From: a virus
Direction: 5' to 3' (one strand)
Length of the DNA: 40,712 nucleotides
Virus record (IMG/VR): IMGVR_UViG_3300046535_001514
Coordinates: 1 to 40,712 of that record
The position numbers and the translations under genes were made by a program. The notes beneath the pieces were generated by a model that was not told where the DNA came from, ran no database searches, and worked only from the letters and a program-made list of their open reading frames with translations. Shown here one piece after another: positions 4,228-14,784 of the stretch. How positions within the stretch are numbered: the first letter of the stretch is position 1; each line of letters opens with the position of its first letter.

Positions 4228-4391
4228 ACCTCAGGATCTCCAAACAATAACCTTTCTACTTCCTCTCGATCCTGTTGGCGTTTTTCATCATACTCTTTCC
4301 GAAGTTTCCCCAATCTTCTATCATTCTTTAAGATAAAAATACAGCAGATAAAGGTACCAACATTACATAGTATTATAATTAAATCACTCAT
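4224..4391 (-). CDS. Small single-pass membrane protein with charged tail
   Basis: A 55-residue protein. Residues 3-21 are hydrophobic (DLIIILCNVGTFICCIFIL), followed by a highly charged, probably coiled-coil tail (LGKLRKEYDEKRQQDREEVE). AAAGGAG lies eight bases before the ATG at 4391. The gene overlaps the end of the nuclease gene and the start of the next gene, as expected in a packed operon. Its first residues resemble other tiny membrane peptides at 37362-37493 and 37524-37589. It might be a spanin- or holin-type accessory; unknown. Confidence 0.68.
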   Translation of the reverse strand: MSDLIIILCNVGTFICCIFILKNDRRLGKLRKEYDEKRQQDREEVERLLFGDPEV

Positions 4392-4911
4392 ACTTCGTGC
4401 TCTCCTTTAATCGCTTCTCGAAGTTACGGTCATACACACGATAGAACTGCCGGTCTACGATTGTGCACAGGTTCTCCGCATTCTTGTTTTGTGCGGCTTC
4501 TGAGTAATTGTAGCTACCCAAAATAGTTATGTCATCATCGATCAATATGATCTTGTTATGCGCGATGGCTGGTTTGTAATCTATCCACACTGGAATGCTT
4601 AGAGATTTAAGGTAGTTTGCAGCGCTCTGAGTCGTCTTTCCATCTGTCACCTGTGATTTGTCCAGAACCACTCTGATGAAGACGCCACGCGCCTTAGCGT
4701 TGGCTAGAGCTGCCAGGATGTCAGGATTTGTGAGCACGTAAGCTTGCACCTTGATTGTAACCTGCGCCCCGTCAATCTCATGTATGACCTGGTCTGCGCA
4801 CTGGCCTCCTGGCGTAAAGCAGATGTTGGCGGTTGCTTTCTTGCCAAAGTGGATCGCTGATGCTGACATGCATATAAAAAGTAATGCTACTGCTAATATT
4901 TTATACTTCAT
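4384..4911 (-). CDS. Secreted phospholipase-D-family nuclease (Nuc-like)
   Basis: A 175-residue protein. Residues 1-19 form a signal peptide (MKYKILAVALLFICMSASA) and predict export to the periplasm. One HKD motif is complete: H118, K120, D125, with G132-S133 and N135 after it (AHNKIILIDD, then GSYNYSEAAQNKNAEN). A single HKD motif in about 155 mature residues is typical of the dimeric Nuc/EDTA-resistant endonucleases. Known members cut DNA phosphodiesters without metal. A periplasmic nuclease in a phage accessory operon could destroy incoming competitor DNA or help degrade host DNA at lysis; that role is inference. Confidence 0.85.
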   Translation of the reverse strand: MKYKILAVALLFICMSASAIHFGKKATANICFTPGGQCADQVIHEIDGAQVTIKVQAYVLTNPDILAALANAKARGVFIRVVLDKSQVTDGKTTQSAANYLKSLSIPVWIDYKPAIAHNKIILIDDDITILGSYNYSEAAQNKNAENLCTIVDRQFYRVYDRNFEKRLKESTKYE

Positions 4912-5470: not shown

Positions 5471-5547
5471 TGGCTCCCCGAACTGGACTCGAACCAGTGA
5501 CCTAGCGATTAACAATCGCGCGCTCTACCGAGCTGAGCTATCAGGGA
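5471..5547 (-). tRNA. tRNA-Asn (anticodon GUU)
   Basis: A full cloverleaf on the minus strand. The acceptor stem pairs TCCCTGA with TCGGGGA. The D arm is AGCTCAGCTCGGTAGAGC. The anticodon arm GCGAT/ATCGC has loop TTGTTAA and anticodon GTT. The T arm is CTGGTTCGAGTCCAG. A discriminator G and an encoded CCA (5473-5471) follow. It closely resembles gammaproteobacterial tRNA-Asn. Its first seven bases overlap the last codon and TGA of the upstream coding gene, so it must be processed out of an mRNA transcript. It is complete, not a truncated attachment-site copy. Confidence 0.95.
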
Positions 5548-5969
5548 GTATACGTTAATACACCCGAGGAAGGTGCAAACATCCCCGAAATCCCGCAGCA
5601 TGAATTACAAACAAAAATCCTTCTTGATTTTCCCGCTAAATTCAGATATAGCCCATTACATTCTTTCGCTCGATCACCACATTTGCCGCAGATTTTTCCT
5701 AGCACTTCATCCTTATTTTCTTCTCGAGCAATCGAGTGATTAGCTCTGCGTTCTTCAGCTTCTTTTTTTGCATTCGGATTTCTTATCCACTGGTTAGAGC
5801 GATCAAACTCCTTCAGCTCATCAGAATCAACAGCCCACCCAGTACCATGCTTCCTAGCTACAATTCTCCCCTTCCTGCATAAAGCCCTCACAGTTACTGG
5901 ACTCATAGGATATCCTGTTTTTTTAGCTATTAATTCTGCCGCTTCTTTTGTTGTCAGAGCTCTCGTCAT
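5541..5969 (-). CDS. HTH plus zinc-ribbon DNA-binding protein
   Basis: A 142-residue protein. The N-terminal 55 residues fit a MerR/excisionase-type winged helix: LTTKEAAELIAKKTGYPMSP then TVRALCRKGRIVARKHGTGW. A charged linker follows. The C-terminal part has a zinc ribbon built from C94-x-x-C97, C104 and C121-x-x-C124/C125. This is a plausible transcription regulator and one candidate for binding the ATCGCTGGCGAT operator upstream of its own operon (inference). Its TGA is formed by the 5' end of the tRNA-Asn gene. Confidence 0.75.
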   Translation of the reverse strand: MTRALTTKEAAELIAKKTGYPMSPVTVRALCRKGRIVARKHGTGWAVDSDELKEFDRSNQWIRNPNAKKEAEERRANHSIAREENKDEVLGKICGKCGDRAKECNGLYLNLAGKSRRIFVCNSCCGISGMFAPSSGVLTYTP

Positions 5970-7124: not shown

Positions 7125-7386
7125 TCAACCTTTAATGCATAGAATCTGTTTTAGTGTCGCCACAGGCTTAACCAAATCTTTCTGAGCATTCATTACAGAA
7201 TCAATTGATTTGTATGATTCTGGTATTTCATCTATGAAAGACGATCCTTTTTGGCATCAAAGCCACCCATTTGTAAATAAATGGCAATGAAGACAAGTTA
7301 ACCGCTTGTTGTATTGCCTGGTGTTCTATGTTAACACCATCATCCCAGACTTTAATTGGGTGTGTTACACCGTCCAAAACTCTCAT
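7125..7386 (-). pseudogene. rtcB: rtcB RNA-ligase remnant with internal deletion
   Basis: The first 44 codons read as the start of RtcB: VKVWDDGVNIEHQAIQQAVN then LSSLPFIYKWVALMP, the segment that in intact RtcB leads into the metal-binding DVH motif. There the frame ends in RIVFHR-stop. In another frame the sequence continues as the RtcB C-terminus: IDEIPESYKSIDSVMNAQKD, then LVKPVATLKQILCIKG-stop. More than 300 codons carrying all catalytic cysteine and histidine residues are missing. Both ends are still very recognisable, so the deletion looks recent. It lies directly behind the strong promoter at 7558. Confidence 0.85.
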
Positions 7387-7529: not shown

Positions 7530-7558
7530 ATCATAATCGCTGGCGATCGTCATGTCAA
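7530..7558 (-). promoter_or_regulatory. Leftward early promoter with palindrome in the spacer
   Basis: On the minus strand, a perfect -35 TTGACA (7558-7553), a 17-bp spacer and -10 TATGAT (7535-7530). The spacer contains the palindrome ATCGCCAGCGAT (7547-7536). The 29-bp element matches the rightward promoter at 12095-12123 at 23 positions, including both hexamer positions and the palindrome. A repressor bound to the palindrome would block RNA polymerase directly. It drives the accessory operon that ends at 3574. Confidence 0.8.
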
Positions 7559-8394: not shown

Positions 8395-8815
8395 CTTACC
8401 CTACTGCTACATATGCCATAGTCGAGTGGTTTGATTGTTTTTGAATTACAGGGCATATCTGTGTGATAGTTTTGGGTCAAAGTCTCAAAGTTCGCTGATT
8501 TTCAAATCTCATCAAGTTGAAATATCAACATCCAGTACTTTACCATAGTTTCTACAGGGTTGTATGTTTGCAGTTAAAAATACATAAATACTAATCTGTT
8601 ATAAATATATAAATATACCTTTGCGACAGAGCACTTTTTTTGACGAAAAAAACGCTTTTTTGAAAAAAGCTATCCACAGGTTATCCACAGGCAAATTGGT
8701 ACTTATCCACAGGTTATCCACAACTTATCCACAGGCTCTCTTTTCCAAGGGTATACCCGGATCAAATCCTTGTTTTTCTGTGTTTCTTGATTTGTTTTGG
8801 ATTGTATTTTGAGTT
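8395..8815. other. Probable replication origin: AT-rich region plus DnaA boxes
   Basis: This region codes for no convincing protein. An AT-rich stretch (about 8565-8640, with ATAAATATATAAATATACC) is followed by a cluster of DnaA boxes at 8670-8733. That is the layout of a bacterial-type origin, with a duplex-unwinding element beside an initiator-box array. No phage polymerase or helicase was found, so recruiting host DnaA and the host replisome is plausible. An inverted repeat ATATGCC (8411-8417) and GGCATAT (8452-8458) lies near the nuclease start. Confidence 0.65.
8670..8733 (+). repeat. Array of five DnaA boxes
   Basis: TTATCCACA, the high-affinity DnaA consensus, occurs perfectly at 8681-8689, 8703-8711, 8714-8722 and 8725-8733. 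A one-mismatch copy, CTATCCACA, is at 8670-8678. Start-to-start spacing is 11, 22, 11 and 11 bp, so all boxes lie on the same helical face in the same orientation. Such phasing favours cooperative loading of DnaA. Confidence 0.85.
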
Positions 8816-11935: not shown

Positions 11936-12098
11936 CATATTAGTTTTACTGGCATTCTCTATGATAATTTTTTATGGATTATTGATACTGGCTCATTGGC
12001 CTACATCAATACCTATTAAAGTGTTGCTGTATTTTTATGCCTACATGGCAGCGTATGGATTGCTCATGCATTGCATAAAGATCAAACGATTGTATTGA
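11922..12098 (+). CDS. Small two-pass membrane protein
   Basis: A 58-residue protein starting at 11922 behind AAAAGGAG. Residues 5-24 (NILVLLAFSMIIFYGLLILA) and 32-50 form two transmembrane helices, with a basic C-terminus (IKIKRLY). It overlaps the end of csrA. It could be an inner-membrane inhibitor or superinfection-exclusion protein; the sequence does not tell. The next promoter begins at its stop codon. Confidence 0.68.
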   Translation: MAKNNILVLLAFSMIIFYGLLILAHWPTSIPIKVLLYFYAYMAAYGLLMHCIKIKRLY

Positions 12099-12123
12099 CA
12101 TCATGATCGCTGGCGATTACAAT
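12095..12123 (+). promoter_or_regulatory. Rightward promoter with palindrome in the spacer
   Basis: Perfect -35 TTGACA (12095-12100), a 17-bp spacer and -10 TACAAT (12118-12123). The spacer holds the palindrome ATCGCTGGCGAT (12106-12117). It is a near-copy of the leftward promoter at 7558-7530 (23 of 29 positions). The start would lie about 10 bp before the ribosome site of the gene at 12141. It gives the distal half of the cluster, including the RNA ligase, its own control. Confidence 0.82.
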
Positions 12124-12140
12124 CATGATAAGGAGTGGAA

Positions 12141-12353
12141 ATGACAAAATACACAAAGCATACGGTTGGCGATGACGGTTTTACAGAATGGTTTAATCCT
12201 ATGCCCTTATGGAAAGTTAGTTGCTGCGATTGTGGTCTAGTCCATGATATAGAGCTAAAAATAAAGAATAAGAGGATATTAATCCGTGCAAAGAGAAATT
12301 ATCGTGCTACGGGTCAAAAAAGAAGACACATGAACAGGAGAAAAGATGACTGA
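12141..12353 (+). CDS. Small phage protein with CCDCG motif
   Basis: A 70-residue protein starting at the ATG at 12141 after AAGGAG. A GTG two codons earlier is possible. WKVSCCDCGLVHDIELKIKN followed by RAKRNYRATGQKRRHMNRRK matches a small phage protein type seen beside early genes of many phages of proteobacteria. It is basic at the end, perhaps nucleic-acid-binding with a metal site. Biochemical role unknown. Confidence 0.72.
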   Translation: MTKYTKHTVGDDGFTEWFNPMPLWKVSCCDCGLVHDIELKIKNKRILIRAKRNYRATGQKRRHMNRRKDD

Positions 12354-12723
12354 TTTTAAAGTGGGCGACTTAGTAATTGTAGGCGAAAGCTCAGCCGTGG
12401 CTGAAGTTATTAAATGCTCAGAGAAGTGGGTTTTTATTTATTTTGACAACGATCAGGTCGAAAAGTGCCTGAGGATGGAACTATCTTTACTGCCCCCGCA
12501 GCCCTTTAAAAACGGCCAGGTCTTGTGTGTAGATATTAGCCAACGCAAAGGCATTTTGATAGATTATTCACAACCAAGACAATTTCTCGCTAAGTTTGAT
12601 TACATGATAGATAAAAATTATGCGTATCTGACTATAGAAGTTGATGGGGAGCGAATGTACATTTGCGCGCATATTAATGAGTTGTCTGAATGCCTGATCG
12701 ATTTTGAAGAGGAGGCGGCATAA
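12346..12723 (+). CDS. KOW/SH3-like protein
   Basis: A 125-residue protein opening MTDFKVGDLVIVGESSAVAE, the same VGD signature as the leftward family at 5973-7100. A second barrel-like segment starts at PFKNGQVLCVDISQRKGILI. It ends in an acidic tail. It overlaps the gene before by eight bases and the gene after by one. It probably adopts one or two small beta barrels. Partner unknown. Confidence 0.68.
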   Translation: MTDFKVGDLVIVGESSAVAEVIKCSEKWVFIYFDNDQVEKCLRMELSLLPPQPFKNGQVLCVDISQRKGILIDYSQPRQFLAKFDYMIDKNYAYLTIEVDGERMYICAHINELSECLIDFEEEAA

Positions 12724-12965
12724 TGACTATCAAGAAACATGGGGATATTTATCCTATGCAGACAGCCCCTCGAGACGGAACCCCAGTATTTTTACTGTCA
12801 ACTAAAGGGTGGTTTAAGGCTGTATTCCGTGGCGATACCTGGCAACCGATGGACTTCGACGGGTGGGAAATAGATTTTGATAAGGCATCACATTGGAGAC
12901 CAATGCAAACGAGCATGCGTAGAACTAATTTAAATCCAGATTTAAATTTAGAGGAGGCTGAATAA
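12723..12965 (+). CDS. Small HWRP-domain protein (DUF551-like)
   Basis: An 80-residue protein with MQTAPRDGTPVFLLSTKGWF, a Trp-rich centre and HWRPMQT. The frame xxPxDGxxVL...W...HWRPM is that of small phage proteins annotated as DUF551 or similar. It is the first of three such genes within 1.2 kb (with 13311 and 13586). Start and stop overlap its neighbours by one base. These proteins are widespread in phages, but their function is not known. Confidence 0.7.
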   Translation: MTIKKHGDIYPMQTAPRDGTPVFLLSTKGWFKAVFRGDTWQPMDFDGWEIDFDKASHWRPMQTSMRRTNLNPDLNLEEAE

Positions 12966-13318
12966 TGGCTGAACTTTTGCTAAAAAAGTACCATGATTTC
13001 ATAGTCCTTTTGGCTAGTCAAGATCCAGACGAGGTGGATTTTGATGAGATTGTTTGTGAGGCTGAAAAATTCTTAGAGGAGAATCCGATCTATGAACAAA
13101 TAAATAAATTTCATCATTTAGACAAAAATTGGGAGTCTAGTTGGCCTCAATGTAATATCTTTTGCGTTTTTTGTATTGATTGTGATGATGCAGAAAAAGG
13201 TATGCTCAAGCAATCGCCTGATGGATATCGCATATTCACGCACAGTAGGATTATCTCTGTTAGAGAATCTAAAAAGTGTATCATGTGGAGATATTATTTT
13301 GAGGGCGAAGATGAGTAA
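12965..13318 (+). CDS. Hypothetical 117-residue protein
   Basis: An acidic N-terminal helix region (ASQDPDEVDFDEIVCEAEKF) is followed by a Cys/Trp-rich middle (WPQCNIFCVFCIDCDDAEKG) and a beta-rich end (IISVRESKKCIMWRYYFEG). The cysteine cluster could bind a metal. It is embedded between HWRP genes with overlapping start and stop codons. No family recognised. Confidence 0.65.
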   Translation: MAELLLKKYHDFIVLLASQDPDEVDFDEIVCEAEKFLEENPIYEQINKFHHLDKNWESSWPQCNIFCVFCIDCDDAEKGMLKQSPDGYRIFTHSRIISVRESKKCIMWRYYFEGEDE

Positions 13319-13589
13319 CTGGATAAAATTCGACAAGAATGACCTTACCACATGGCCTCCATACAAGGTCAATGTCTTGGCTATTGATGAATACAAAGAC
13401 ATCCAAACCGTAAGCCACGATACGTATGATTTTGATGAAGATGATGAGGATGCCTCGGAGACGGACGACTTTGGAAAAAACGAGCATTTTTTGGCGATGG
13501 CTCACGAGTGTTCATACGATTACACCCACGATGTGACGGACTCGGTAACGCATTGGCGGCCTATGATCGATCTGCCGGAGGATTTATGA
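13311..13589 (+). CDS. HWRP-domain protein (DUF551-like), tandem copy 2
   Basis: A 92-residue protein. The start at 13311 (ATGAGTAA overlap with the previous stop) is chosen because the sequence MSNWIKFDKNDLTTWPPYKV matches the start of the next gene (MSKWIKFD then EKTWPEF). It has a very acidic insert in the middle (DFDEDDEDASETDDFG) and ends THWRPMIDLPEDL. Probably a tandem paralogue pair. Confidence 0.7.
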   Translation: MSNWIKFDKNDLTTWPPYKVNVLAIDEYKDIQTVSHDTYDFDEDDEDASETDDFGKNEHFLAMAHECSYDYTHDVTDSVTHWRPMIDLPEDL

Positions 13590-13939
13590 GCAAGTGGATT
13601 AAATTTGATGTGTTCGACGAAAAAACATGGCCAGAGTTTGAGGAAGAGATTTTACTGGTTATGAATATCAGTAATCATTCTTATGTAACTATTGGCAGAA
13701 TAGTTGATTGTCGTGGTATAGACGAAGGTTTGGCAGTCTATGCGGATGGCTGTAGTGATGGTATTAAATGTGTCACACACTGGCGGCCAATTCCTGATCC
13801 TCCTACTATGAAACCCAAAGTATGCCCCGCATGCGGTAACCCGCCGAAGCCGTTCGAGACAGACTCGATCGACAAAGATCCATACAAGACCTGCGCCATG
13901 TGCGGGGAAATGACAGCTGACCAACAGGATTTAGCATAA
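13586..13939 (+). CDS. HWRP-domain protein with C-terminal zinc ribbon, tandem copy 3
   Basis: A 117-residue protein starting at 13586 behind GGAGG, with an ATGA overlap. An N-terminal DUF551-like unit runs from MSKWIKFDVFDEKTWPEFEE to THWRPIPDPP. It is then fused to a zinc ribbon made of CPACGNPPK and CAMCGE (CxxC...CxxC). Its two neighbours lack this extension, so this looks like a domain fusion. Function unknown. Confidence 0.7.
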   Translation: MSKWIKFDVFDEKTWPEFEEEILLVMNISNHSYVTIGRIVDCRGIDEGLAVYADGCSDGIKCVTHWRPIPDPPTMKPKVCPACGNPPKPFETDSIDKDPYKTCAMCGEMTADQQDLA

Positions 13940-14784
13940 TGCCCGAATTTAAGAAATTTCCGAAAATTGAAAGATACGACGTCGTTGAATTCACTATTAC
14001 TCAAAAATTGCATGGGTCTAATGCTCAAGTCTATATTTTTGAAACAGAGAATGGACTAGATTTGTTGTGCGGCAGTAGATCAAGATGGATTACGCCCGAG
14101 GATGACAACTTCGGATTCGCTAAATTTGTGCAAAACAATAAACAAGATTTCATGGATACTCTTGGAATTGGTAGGCATTACGGGGAATGGGTGGGCAAAG
14201 GAATAAACACAGGAGAAGGACTTATCGATAAACAATTCTTCTTGTTCAATTGGAAGAGATGGGTGTTTATTCCTTTGCCAGAAAATGTTCGCCGTATCCC
14301 ACTGATAAGCCATGGTCATACATTTCTATATGAGCTGGATGGTAGGATAGAATGTGCAATGGAAGATCTTAAAGAATCAGGTAGCAAAATTTGCCCTGGT
14401 TATATGAAGCCAGAGGGCATCGTAATAGAAATAAATGGGGTATTTTACAAGAAGACTTTCGAAAATGAGGAAGTCGCCTGGAAGTGCAAAGAAAAATCAG
14501 ACAATCCTTTCATTGGGCAAGTAGATGTTTCGCACTTATTGCAACCGCTTCGATTGGAAAAATTACTCTCTCGAGATGAAAAGTATGTAAGGGATTATCC
14601 GCGCAGTCTGCCTATAATCTGCGCAGATTATGTCAATGACCTTGAAGAAGAAGGACAATTTTTCGAGAACGATGAAGAGCAGATTAAGGCAATTAAACGG
14701 GCATTAGGCAGGAAATTATTTTCTTTCGTTAAAGCCACGGTTACTTCTTCGGCTCAACCGGCTGATCTATCGAAAAAAGATTAG
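13939..14784 (+). CDS. RNA ligase (Rnl2-type nucleotidyltransferase)
   Basis: A 281-residue protein with the ordered motifs of covalent nucleotidyl transferases. Motif I is KLHG at 23-26, where K23 is the expected adenylated lysine (TQKLHGSNAQVYI). Motif III/IIIa regions are GEWVGKG (82-88) and FFLFNW (100-105), motif IV is PEGIVIEI (158-165), and motif V is WKCKEK (181-186). Spacing fits the T4 Rnl2-like RNA ligases, which seal nicks in duplex or tRNA-like RNA. Likely role: repair of RNAs cut by host anticodon nucleases. Its last 44 bp overlap the convergent holin-like gene. Confidence 0.85.
   Translation: MPEFKKFPKIERYDVVEFTITQKLHGSNAQVYIFETENGLDLLCGSRSRWITPEDDNFGFAKFVQNNKQDFMDTLGIGRHYGEWVGKGINTGEGLIDKQFFLFNWKRWVFIPLPENVRRIPLISHGHTFLYELDGRIECAMEDLKESGSKICPGYMKPEGIVIEINGVFYKKTFENEEVAWKCKEKSDNPFIGQVDVSHLLQPLRLEKLLSRDEKYVRDYPRSLPIICADYVNDLEEEGQFFENDEEQIKAIKRALGRKLFSFVKATVTSSAQPADLSKKD

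What the first reader, a model, noticed from the sequence alone, without database searches (positions are those of the whole stretch)
13939..14784. RNA ligase, tRNA-Asn and RtcB remnant: a candidate RNA-repair / anti-anticodon-nuclease module
The Rnl2-type ligase has all motifs. The phage also encodes an intact tRNA-Asn(GUU) and once encoded RtcB. T4-type RNA repair counters anticodon nucleases. tRNA-Asn is among the tRNAs cut by colicin E5-type toxins that target queuosine-family anticodons. The ligase and tRNA operons are driven by twin promoters sharing the same palindrome, so they would be expressed together. No polynucleotide kinase partner is visible, so the RNA end chemistry handled is an open question.
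Basis: partly seen in the sequence, partly recalled or inferred. Interest (0 to 1): 0.7.

Follow-up and report, generated by a model that had tools for sequence, protein, structure and literature searches.

The report
Phage RNA ligase and tRNA-Asn

Summary
13939-14784 (+) encodes a two-domain Rnl2-type RNA ligase: the catalytic domain matches T4 Rnl2, and the C-terminal domain, folded alone, matches T4 Rnl2 residues 248-334 (Z 8.1). tRNA-Asn(GUU) lies at 5471-5547 (-). RtcB survives only as two end fragments in different frames (7356-7252, 7247-7128, -). Two strong promoter-like sites share one palindrome, far beyond chance. No kinase was found. Phage ligase, RtcB and tRNA sets are known as an RNA-repair kit. 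Colicin E5-type cuts leave 2',3'-cyclic-phosphate/5'-OH ends, which need RtcB (dead here) or a kinase-phosphatase (none found). A lone Rnl2 needs 3'-OH/5'-PO4 ends. A published defence nuclease, AriB of PARIS, makes exactly such nicks in the anticodon stem of tRNA-Lys, -Thr and -Asn(GUU). I propose this class of damage as the target; that is inference. The three closest ligase relatives have tRNAs within 0.3-2.3 kb on the same strand, but the general association is weak (p about 0.03-0.05), and many relatives sit among DNA-replication genes. The phage tRNA differs from likely host tRNA-Asn at base 32 and in the stem. New member of a known kind; interest moderate.

The parts
13939..14784 (+). 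two-domain Rnl2-type ATP-dependent RNA ligase, 281 aa; catalytic lysine K23
14500..14781 (+). C-terminal helical domain of the ligase, T4 Rnl2-like; absent from the compact relatives
   Evidence: AF2 model pLDDT 82.6; VIA-align Z 8.1, rmsd 2.8, 81 residues to 2hvr_B 248-334; conserved in 14 IMG/VR relatives
12095..12123 (+). promoter-like site TTGACA-17-TACAAT ahead of the rightward gene run that ends with the ligase
12106..12117 (.). palindrome ATCGCTGGCGAT in the spacer of the rightward promoter
12135..13939 (+). small genes between promoter and ligase (one weak DUF551, no RNA-end-processing domain recognised)
7530..7558 (-). promoter-like site TTGACA-17-TATGAT with the same palindrome, ahead of the leftward gene run
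7252..7356 (-). RtcB remnant, N-terminal piece (43% identical to residues 18-52 of Caulobacter phage BL57 RtcB)
7128..7247 (-). RtcB remnant, C-terminal piece (last 40 residues), other frame; central part with the active site missing
5471..5547 (-). tRNA-Asn(GUU), CCA encoded; U32 and altered 28-42/29-41 pairs compared with Burkholderiales tRNA-Asn
14194..14279 (+). perfect 17-bp inverted repeat inside the ligase gene (arms 14194-14210 and 14263-14279), strong RNA hairpin

Best explanation
The locus is a reduced phage RNA-repair and tRNA-supply set. The surviving enzyme is a two-domain Rnl2-type ligase (shown by sequence and predicted structure). It would seal nicks with 3'-OH and 5'-PO4 ends in double-stranded or structured RNA, without a kinase (established for T4 Rnl2; inferred here). 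The most likely substrate is host or phage tRNA nicked by a metal-dependent defence nuclease, such as the Toprim nuclease AriB of PARIS, which nicks tRNA-Lys, -Thr and -Asn(GUU) between bases 40 and 41 of the anticodon stem and leaves these ends (published for AriB; inferred here). The phage tRNA-Asn would back this up by replacing lost tRNA. The RtcB branch, which would deal with cyclic-phosphate ends, has been lost by an internal deletion (shown).
For: Ligase identity. Both domains have T4 Rnl2 as a leading structural match. RtcB broken; no kinase family in the window and only 1 of 14 two-domain relatives over cut-off, in a 169-kb phage, so kinase-free use is the rule in this clade. AriB makes 3'-OH/5'-PO4 nicks in a duplex stem of tRNA-Asn(GUU), and phage T5 tRNA-Asn helps overcome PARIS (PMC12409363). 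The three closest ligase relatives have tRNAs near on the same strand: L020 ligase then tRNA-Pro, -Met; L019 ligase, phosphoesterase, then tRNA-Thr, -Met, -Gln, -Pro, -Asn; L018 tRNA-Met, an ADP-ribose/ribose-phosphate kinase and nicotinamide transferase pair (like the NAD-restoring counter-defence NARP1), then ligase. Intact viral RtcB genes often sit in tRNA arrays. Phage tRNA-Asn is changed at base 32 and pairs 28-42/29-41.
Against: Host unknown; AriB's Pfam family (DUF4435, link from memory) in only 1 of 60 Burkholderiales genomes. The ligase-tRNA association over 24 records is weak (8 within 3 kb against 3.9 expected, p 0.03; two-domain clade alone p 0.11). In the window the two are 8.9 kb apart on opposite strands. 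Compact relatives lie in DNA-replication operons without tRNA or healing enzymes, and others follow a DNA ligase, RecT, helicase or replication initiator gene. G41 and other stem variants also occur in some bacterial tRNA-Asn. Stand-alone Rnl2 of T4 has no proven role in tRNA repair in vivo.
Confidence: 0.42

Rival explanations
1. The ligase serves RNA or DNA-RNA nick sealing in phage replication or recombination and has nothing to do with tRNA damage; the tRNA-Asn is an independent passenger.
For: Compact relatives sit beside DNA polymerase, primase-helicase, RecA, Dda helicase, thymidylate synthase; two-domain relatives follow a DNA ligase (L026), RecT (L029), helicase (L030) and replication initiator (L024). 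The ligase-tRNA association is weak.
Against: The three closest relatives have a tRNA within 2.3 kb on the same strand; both domains match a dsRNA nick-sealing enzyme.
Confidence: 0.33
2. One reading: ligase plus host or unseen phage end-healing enzymes repair colicin E5 / PrrC-type anticodon cuts of queuosine tRNAs including tRNA-Asn.
For: tRNA-Asn is an E5 target and the phage tRNA keeps G34-U35; RtcB, once present, handles such ends; the record is incomplete.
Against: RtcB is dead, no kinase in the window; Rnl2 cannot join 2',3'-cyclic phosphate to 5'-OH; T4 uses Rnl1 with Pnkp for this.
Confidence: 0.1
3. The tRNA-Asn supplies translation demand for late proteins rich in asparagine (codon or amino-acid supply).
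For: Asn is 6.8% of the larger predicted proteins examined and 7.9% in the tail region; phage tRNA-Asn is common.
Against: As a rule bacteria have a single Asn isoacceptor (GUU), so there is no codon gap to fill; the tRNA carries a base-32 change not seen in 150 Burkholderiales genomes.
Confidence: 0.3
4. The RtcB fragment is an assembly artefact rather than a real deletion.
For: Metagenome contig; no second copy of this region was found.
Against: The junction lies in open sequence behind a strong promoter, with both ends in different frames; nothing else in the region looks chimeric.
Confidence: 0.08

Closest known systems
T4 RNA ligase 2 (Rnl2, gp24.1)
   Same: Motifs I, Ia, III, IIIa align; catalytic domain and C-terminal helical domain match 2hvq/2hvr.
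   Different: 281 against 334 residues, about 20% identity; shorter stretch between motifs III and IV; only one motif V lysine conserved in the clade.
Compact phage RNA ligases annotated 'RNA ligase 2' (Caulobacter, Rhizobium, Mycobacterium phages)
   Same: 38-43% identical over residues 1-180.
   Different: They are 177-205 aa and have no C-terminal domain; the window belongs to a separate two-domain group of at least 15 members.
T4 Pnkp-Rnl1 tRNA-Lys repair against PrrC
   Same: Phage ligase assumed to rejoin cut tRNA.
   Different: Here an Rnl2-type ligase, no Pnkp found, so other RNA ends.
Phage T5 tRNAs against PARIS (AriB)
   Same: Phage tRNA-Asn(GUU) with changes in the anticodon arm; AriB cuts host tRNA-Asn.
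   Different: T5 strategy uses several tRNAs including Lys and Thr and no ligase is invoked; here a single tRNA plus a ligase. Effect on AriB untested.
Phage RtcB ligases
   Same: Remnant ends 67-78% identical to the C-termini of intact viral RtcB.
   Different: Central catalytic part deleted; not functional.

Membership tests
Rnl2-type RNA ligase | RNA_ligase nucleotidyltransferase domain with KxHG(S/T)N, motif III GEW, motif IV EG, motif V lysine | tested here: met
   PF09414 1e-8 over cut-off; alignment to T4 Rnl2; invariant K23, R47, E83, E159, K171
Rnl2-type RNA ligase | T4 Rnl2-like C-terminal domain | tested here: met
   By structure: 2hvr_B residues 248-334, Z 8.1, rmsd 2.8 over 81, next unrelated chain Z 4.8. 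By sequence only weak: PF18043 in 1 of 15 members at E 0.027, not the window protein
Rnl2-type RNA ligase | seals 3'-OH/5'-PO4 nicks in duplex RNA | not testable with these tools
   needs enzyme assay
T4-type Pnkp plus ligase tRNA repair | polynucleotide kinase-phosphatase partner | tested here: not met
   no AAA_33 match at E 0.01 in the window; the record is incomplete at the terminase end
T4-type Pnkp plus ligase tRNA repair | Rnl1-type ligase | tested here: not met
   only PF09414 matched at E 0.1; structural match to Rnl1 weaker (Z 9.6-9.8, catalytic domain only) than to Rnl2
RtcB repair | intact RtcB with active site | tested here: not met
   only end fragments in two frames
Phage tRNAs adapted against tRNA nucleases | anticodon-arm changes relative to the host tRNA | tested here: inconclusive
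   U32 and swapped 28-42/29-41 pairs against Burkholderiales, but the host is not known
PARIS counter-defence | protects against AriB | not tested
   needs experiment; DUF4435 in 1 of 60 Burkholderiales genomes

The most novel reading that the evidence does not exclude
A kinase-free Rnl2 ligase plus a tRNA-Asn altered in the anticodon arm form a two-pronged answer to defence nucleases that nick the tRNA anticodon stem with 3'-OH/5'-PO4 ends (PARIS AriB and similar): the ligase repairs host tRNA and the phage tRNA resists cutting. This would give stand-alone phage Rnl2 enzymes a biological role.
Probability: 0.15. Interest if true: 0.72.

Novelty: new member of a known kind. Interest (0 to 1): 0.4.

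Why it matters
The biological job of stand-alone Rnl2 ligases in phages, T4's included, is still not settled. The chemistry of the ends gives a sharp test: 3'-OH/5'-PO4 nicks, as AriB makes in tRNA-Asn, Thr and Lys, should be sealed by Rnl2 with no helper, while E5, PrrC or Cas13 cuts should not. A ligase group that keeps the T4 C-terminal domain, lacks a kinase and sits near tRNAs in its closest members is a good place to make that test.

Tried and rejected
Close relatives of the ligase by single-sequence scan of IMG/VR: none; the alignment reached 370 relatives, of which 14 share both domains. C-terminal domain in annotated phages: no match. The same promoter-palindrome in other viral contigs: none. 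Polynucleotide kinase in the window: none. The C27.U43 mismatch in the tRNA looked odd but is normal in Caballeronia/Burkholderiales. Idea that ligase, RtcB and tRNA-Asn form a conserved trio: rejected, RtcB is in 0 of 14 two-domain records (2 of 50 overall, both the same phage, with tRNA-Pro) and tRNA-Asn in 1 of 14. Idea that base-32 U is unique to this phage: rejected, at least 56 IMG/VR contigs have it. Two-domain ligases in cellular genomes: only two partial contigs (L122, L127), probably viral. Foldseek with the C-terminal domain alone gave no significant hit; only the structural re-alignment of its candidates singled out T4 Rnl2.

Full report
What the record is. The window is a 40,712-base IMG/VR virus record. 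It carries a P22-like portal, a terminase gene that runs off the end, head and tail genes, and an early region with RecT and VRR-NUC genes. It is not shown to be complete.

The ligase. 13939-14784 (+) encodes 281 aa. It matches Pfam RNA_ligase (1e-8) and PHROG_548 (3e-26). T4 Rnl2 is the only related solved structure found by sequence, and with the 15-member profile the match is 6.7e-6. The catalytic lysine K23 lies in KLHGSN; R47, E83, E159 and K171 are invariant in the clade. Most phage relatives are compact, 177-205 aa, and stop after motif V. The window protein has about 95 further residues with no match in annotated phages. An alignment search of IMG/VR found 14 relatives that share this extension, 39-57% identical. 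The full model has mean pLDDT 86. Its best PDB match is T4 Rnl2, tied with Naegleria Rnl in the structural re-alignment. The C-terminal part folded alone (pLDDT 83) aligns to T4 Rnl2 residues 248-334 with Z 8.1, rmsd 2.8 over 81 residues, against 4.8 for the first unrelated chain; Foldseek alone did not rate it significant. So this is a genuine two-domain Rnl2, and the compact group has lost, or never had, the second domain. In T4 Rnl2 that domain is responsible for substrate specificity (PMC4599027).

The RtcB remnant. PF01139 finds only its last 47 positions at 7262-7128 (-), with a stop. Comparison with intact phage RtcB proteins gives an N-terminal piece at 7356-7252 and a C-terminal piece at 7247-7128 in different frames. 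Related viral RtcB genes are mostly intact (380-412 aa), and several sit directly among tRNA genes: L378 in a 13-tRNA array, L381 behind tRNA-Thr, L385 ahead of tRNA-Pro. RtcB activity is therefore not available from this copy.

The tRNA. tRNA-Asn(GUU) has a complete cloverleaf with CCA. The nearest cellular relatives found are betaproteobacterial, 87% identical. Compared with these it has U32 for C32 and swapped base pairs at 28-42 and 29-41. The U32 form, in a fixed tRNA-Asn pattern, was found in 0 of 150 Burkholderiales, 0 of 200 Pseudomonadota and 0 of 80 Bacteroidota genomes (a few genomes shared). The C32 form was found in 41 of 60 Burkholderiales; no C32 control was run for the other two sets. 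In IMG/VR the U32 form occurs in at least 56 contigs on many different arms, and the C32 form in 120 or more. U32 is thus recurrent in viral tRNA-Asn and rare or absent in the bacteria sampled. This resembles the published pattern of anticodon-loop changes in phage tRNAs (PMC10264068), but the host is unknown.

Promoters. The two sites are 11/12 matches to sigma-70 consensus with 17-nt spacers and share TTGACATSAYGATCGCYRGCGATTAYRAT. The pattern is found twice, 0.02 expected, and not in other IMG/VR contigs. A shared regulator is likely; shared timing of ligase and tRNA is inference.

What it does. RNA end chemistry decides. Rnl2 enzymes need 3'-OH and 5'-PO4 (PMC7824862). Colicin E5, PrrC and other metal-independent nucleases leave cyclic phosphate and 5'-OH; T4 handles PrrC cuts with Pnkp and Rnl1 (PMC3400036). 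Here RtcB is dead and no kinase family was found in the window; among 14 two-domain relatives only a 169-kb phage has one over the cut-off. Metal-dependent nucleases leave ends that Rnl2 can use directly. AriB of PARIS nicks tRNA-Lys(UUU), -Thr(UGU) and -Asn(GUU) between bases 40 and 41 of the anticodon stem, leaving 3'-OH and 5'-PO4, and T5 tRNA-Lys, -Thr and -Asn together overcome it (PMC12409363). A nick in a short RNA duplex is the textbook Rnl2 substrate (own knowledge). This makes AriB-like damage the best single candidate, but it is a match of chemistry and target, not a demonstration.

Neighbourhoods. In the three closest relatives a tRNA lies within 0.3-2.3 kb on the same strand. L018 reads tRNA-Met, ribose-phosphate-pyrophosphokinase-like gene, nicotinamide-phosphoribosyltransferase-like gene, ligase; the pair resembles the NAD-restoring counter-defence NARP1 (PMC12774641), though it could equally be the ordinary PRPP/Nampt pair. 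L019 reads ligase, phosphoesterase, then five tRNAs ending in tRNA-Asn. Against this, over 24 records with a tRNA the ligase lies within 3 kb in 8 (3.9 expected, p 0.03; p 0.05 at 1.5 and 5 kb), and in the two-domain group alone p is 0.11. Many relatives sit in DNA-replication operons. RtcB is in none of the 14 two-domain records. There is no conserved ligase-RtcB-tRNA-Asn trio.

Verdict. The general idea (phage RNA repair and tRNA supply) is established in the literature, and this is a new member of it. The specific E5 model is unlikely; 3'-OH/5'-PO4 nicks are the better hypothesis, with a replication role for the ligase as the main rival.

Noticed in passing
14194-14279: Perfect 17-bp inverted repeat (52-nt spacer) inside the ligase gene, RNA hairpin -32 kcal/mol; the only inverted repeat of 15 or more within 200 nt in the window (0 of 100 shuffles) and absent from the 14 relatives, whose longest is 12. 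Possibly a template-switch product; arm 2 codes VFIPLP where relatives differ.
   Followed up: partly
8681-8733: Four perfect DnaA boxes TTATCCACA in 53 nt (6 in the window, 0.42 expected): likely replication origin or host DnaA titration site.
   Followed up: partly
4384-4911: PLD-family nuclease with a signal-peptide-like start, in the same leftward gene run as the tRNA.
   Followed up: no
5541-5969: HTH_17 / excisionase-like gene whose end overlaps the tRNA-Asn by 7 nt; no integrase turned up among the genes that were scanned, so an attachment-site origin of the tRNA was not shown.
   Followed up: no
L018:3343-6525: tRNA-Met, a ribose-phosphate-pyrophosphokinase-like gene, a nicotinamide-phosphoribosyltransferase-like gene and the Rnl2 ligase in a row on one strand: possible counter-defence island.
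   Followed up: partly
L112:1334-5391 (G023): Another phage with tRNA-Pro, intact RtcB, terminase and a compact ligase within 4 kb.
   Followed up: partly
L199-L254: U32 in tRNA-Asn recurs in at least 56 viral contigs on many different anticodon arms but in none of the bacterial genomes sampled; may be a viral signature worth a proper census.
   Followed up: partly
L003: A 5.9-kb IMG/VR contig whose portal protein is 100% identical to the window's: a second sighting of this phage.
   Followed up: no
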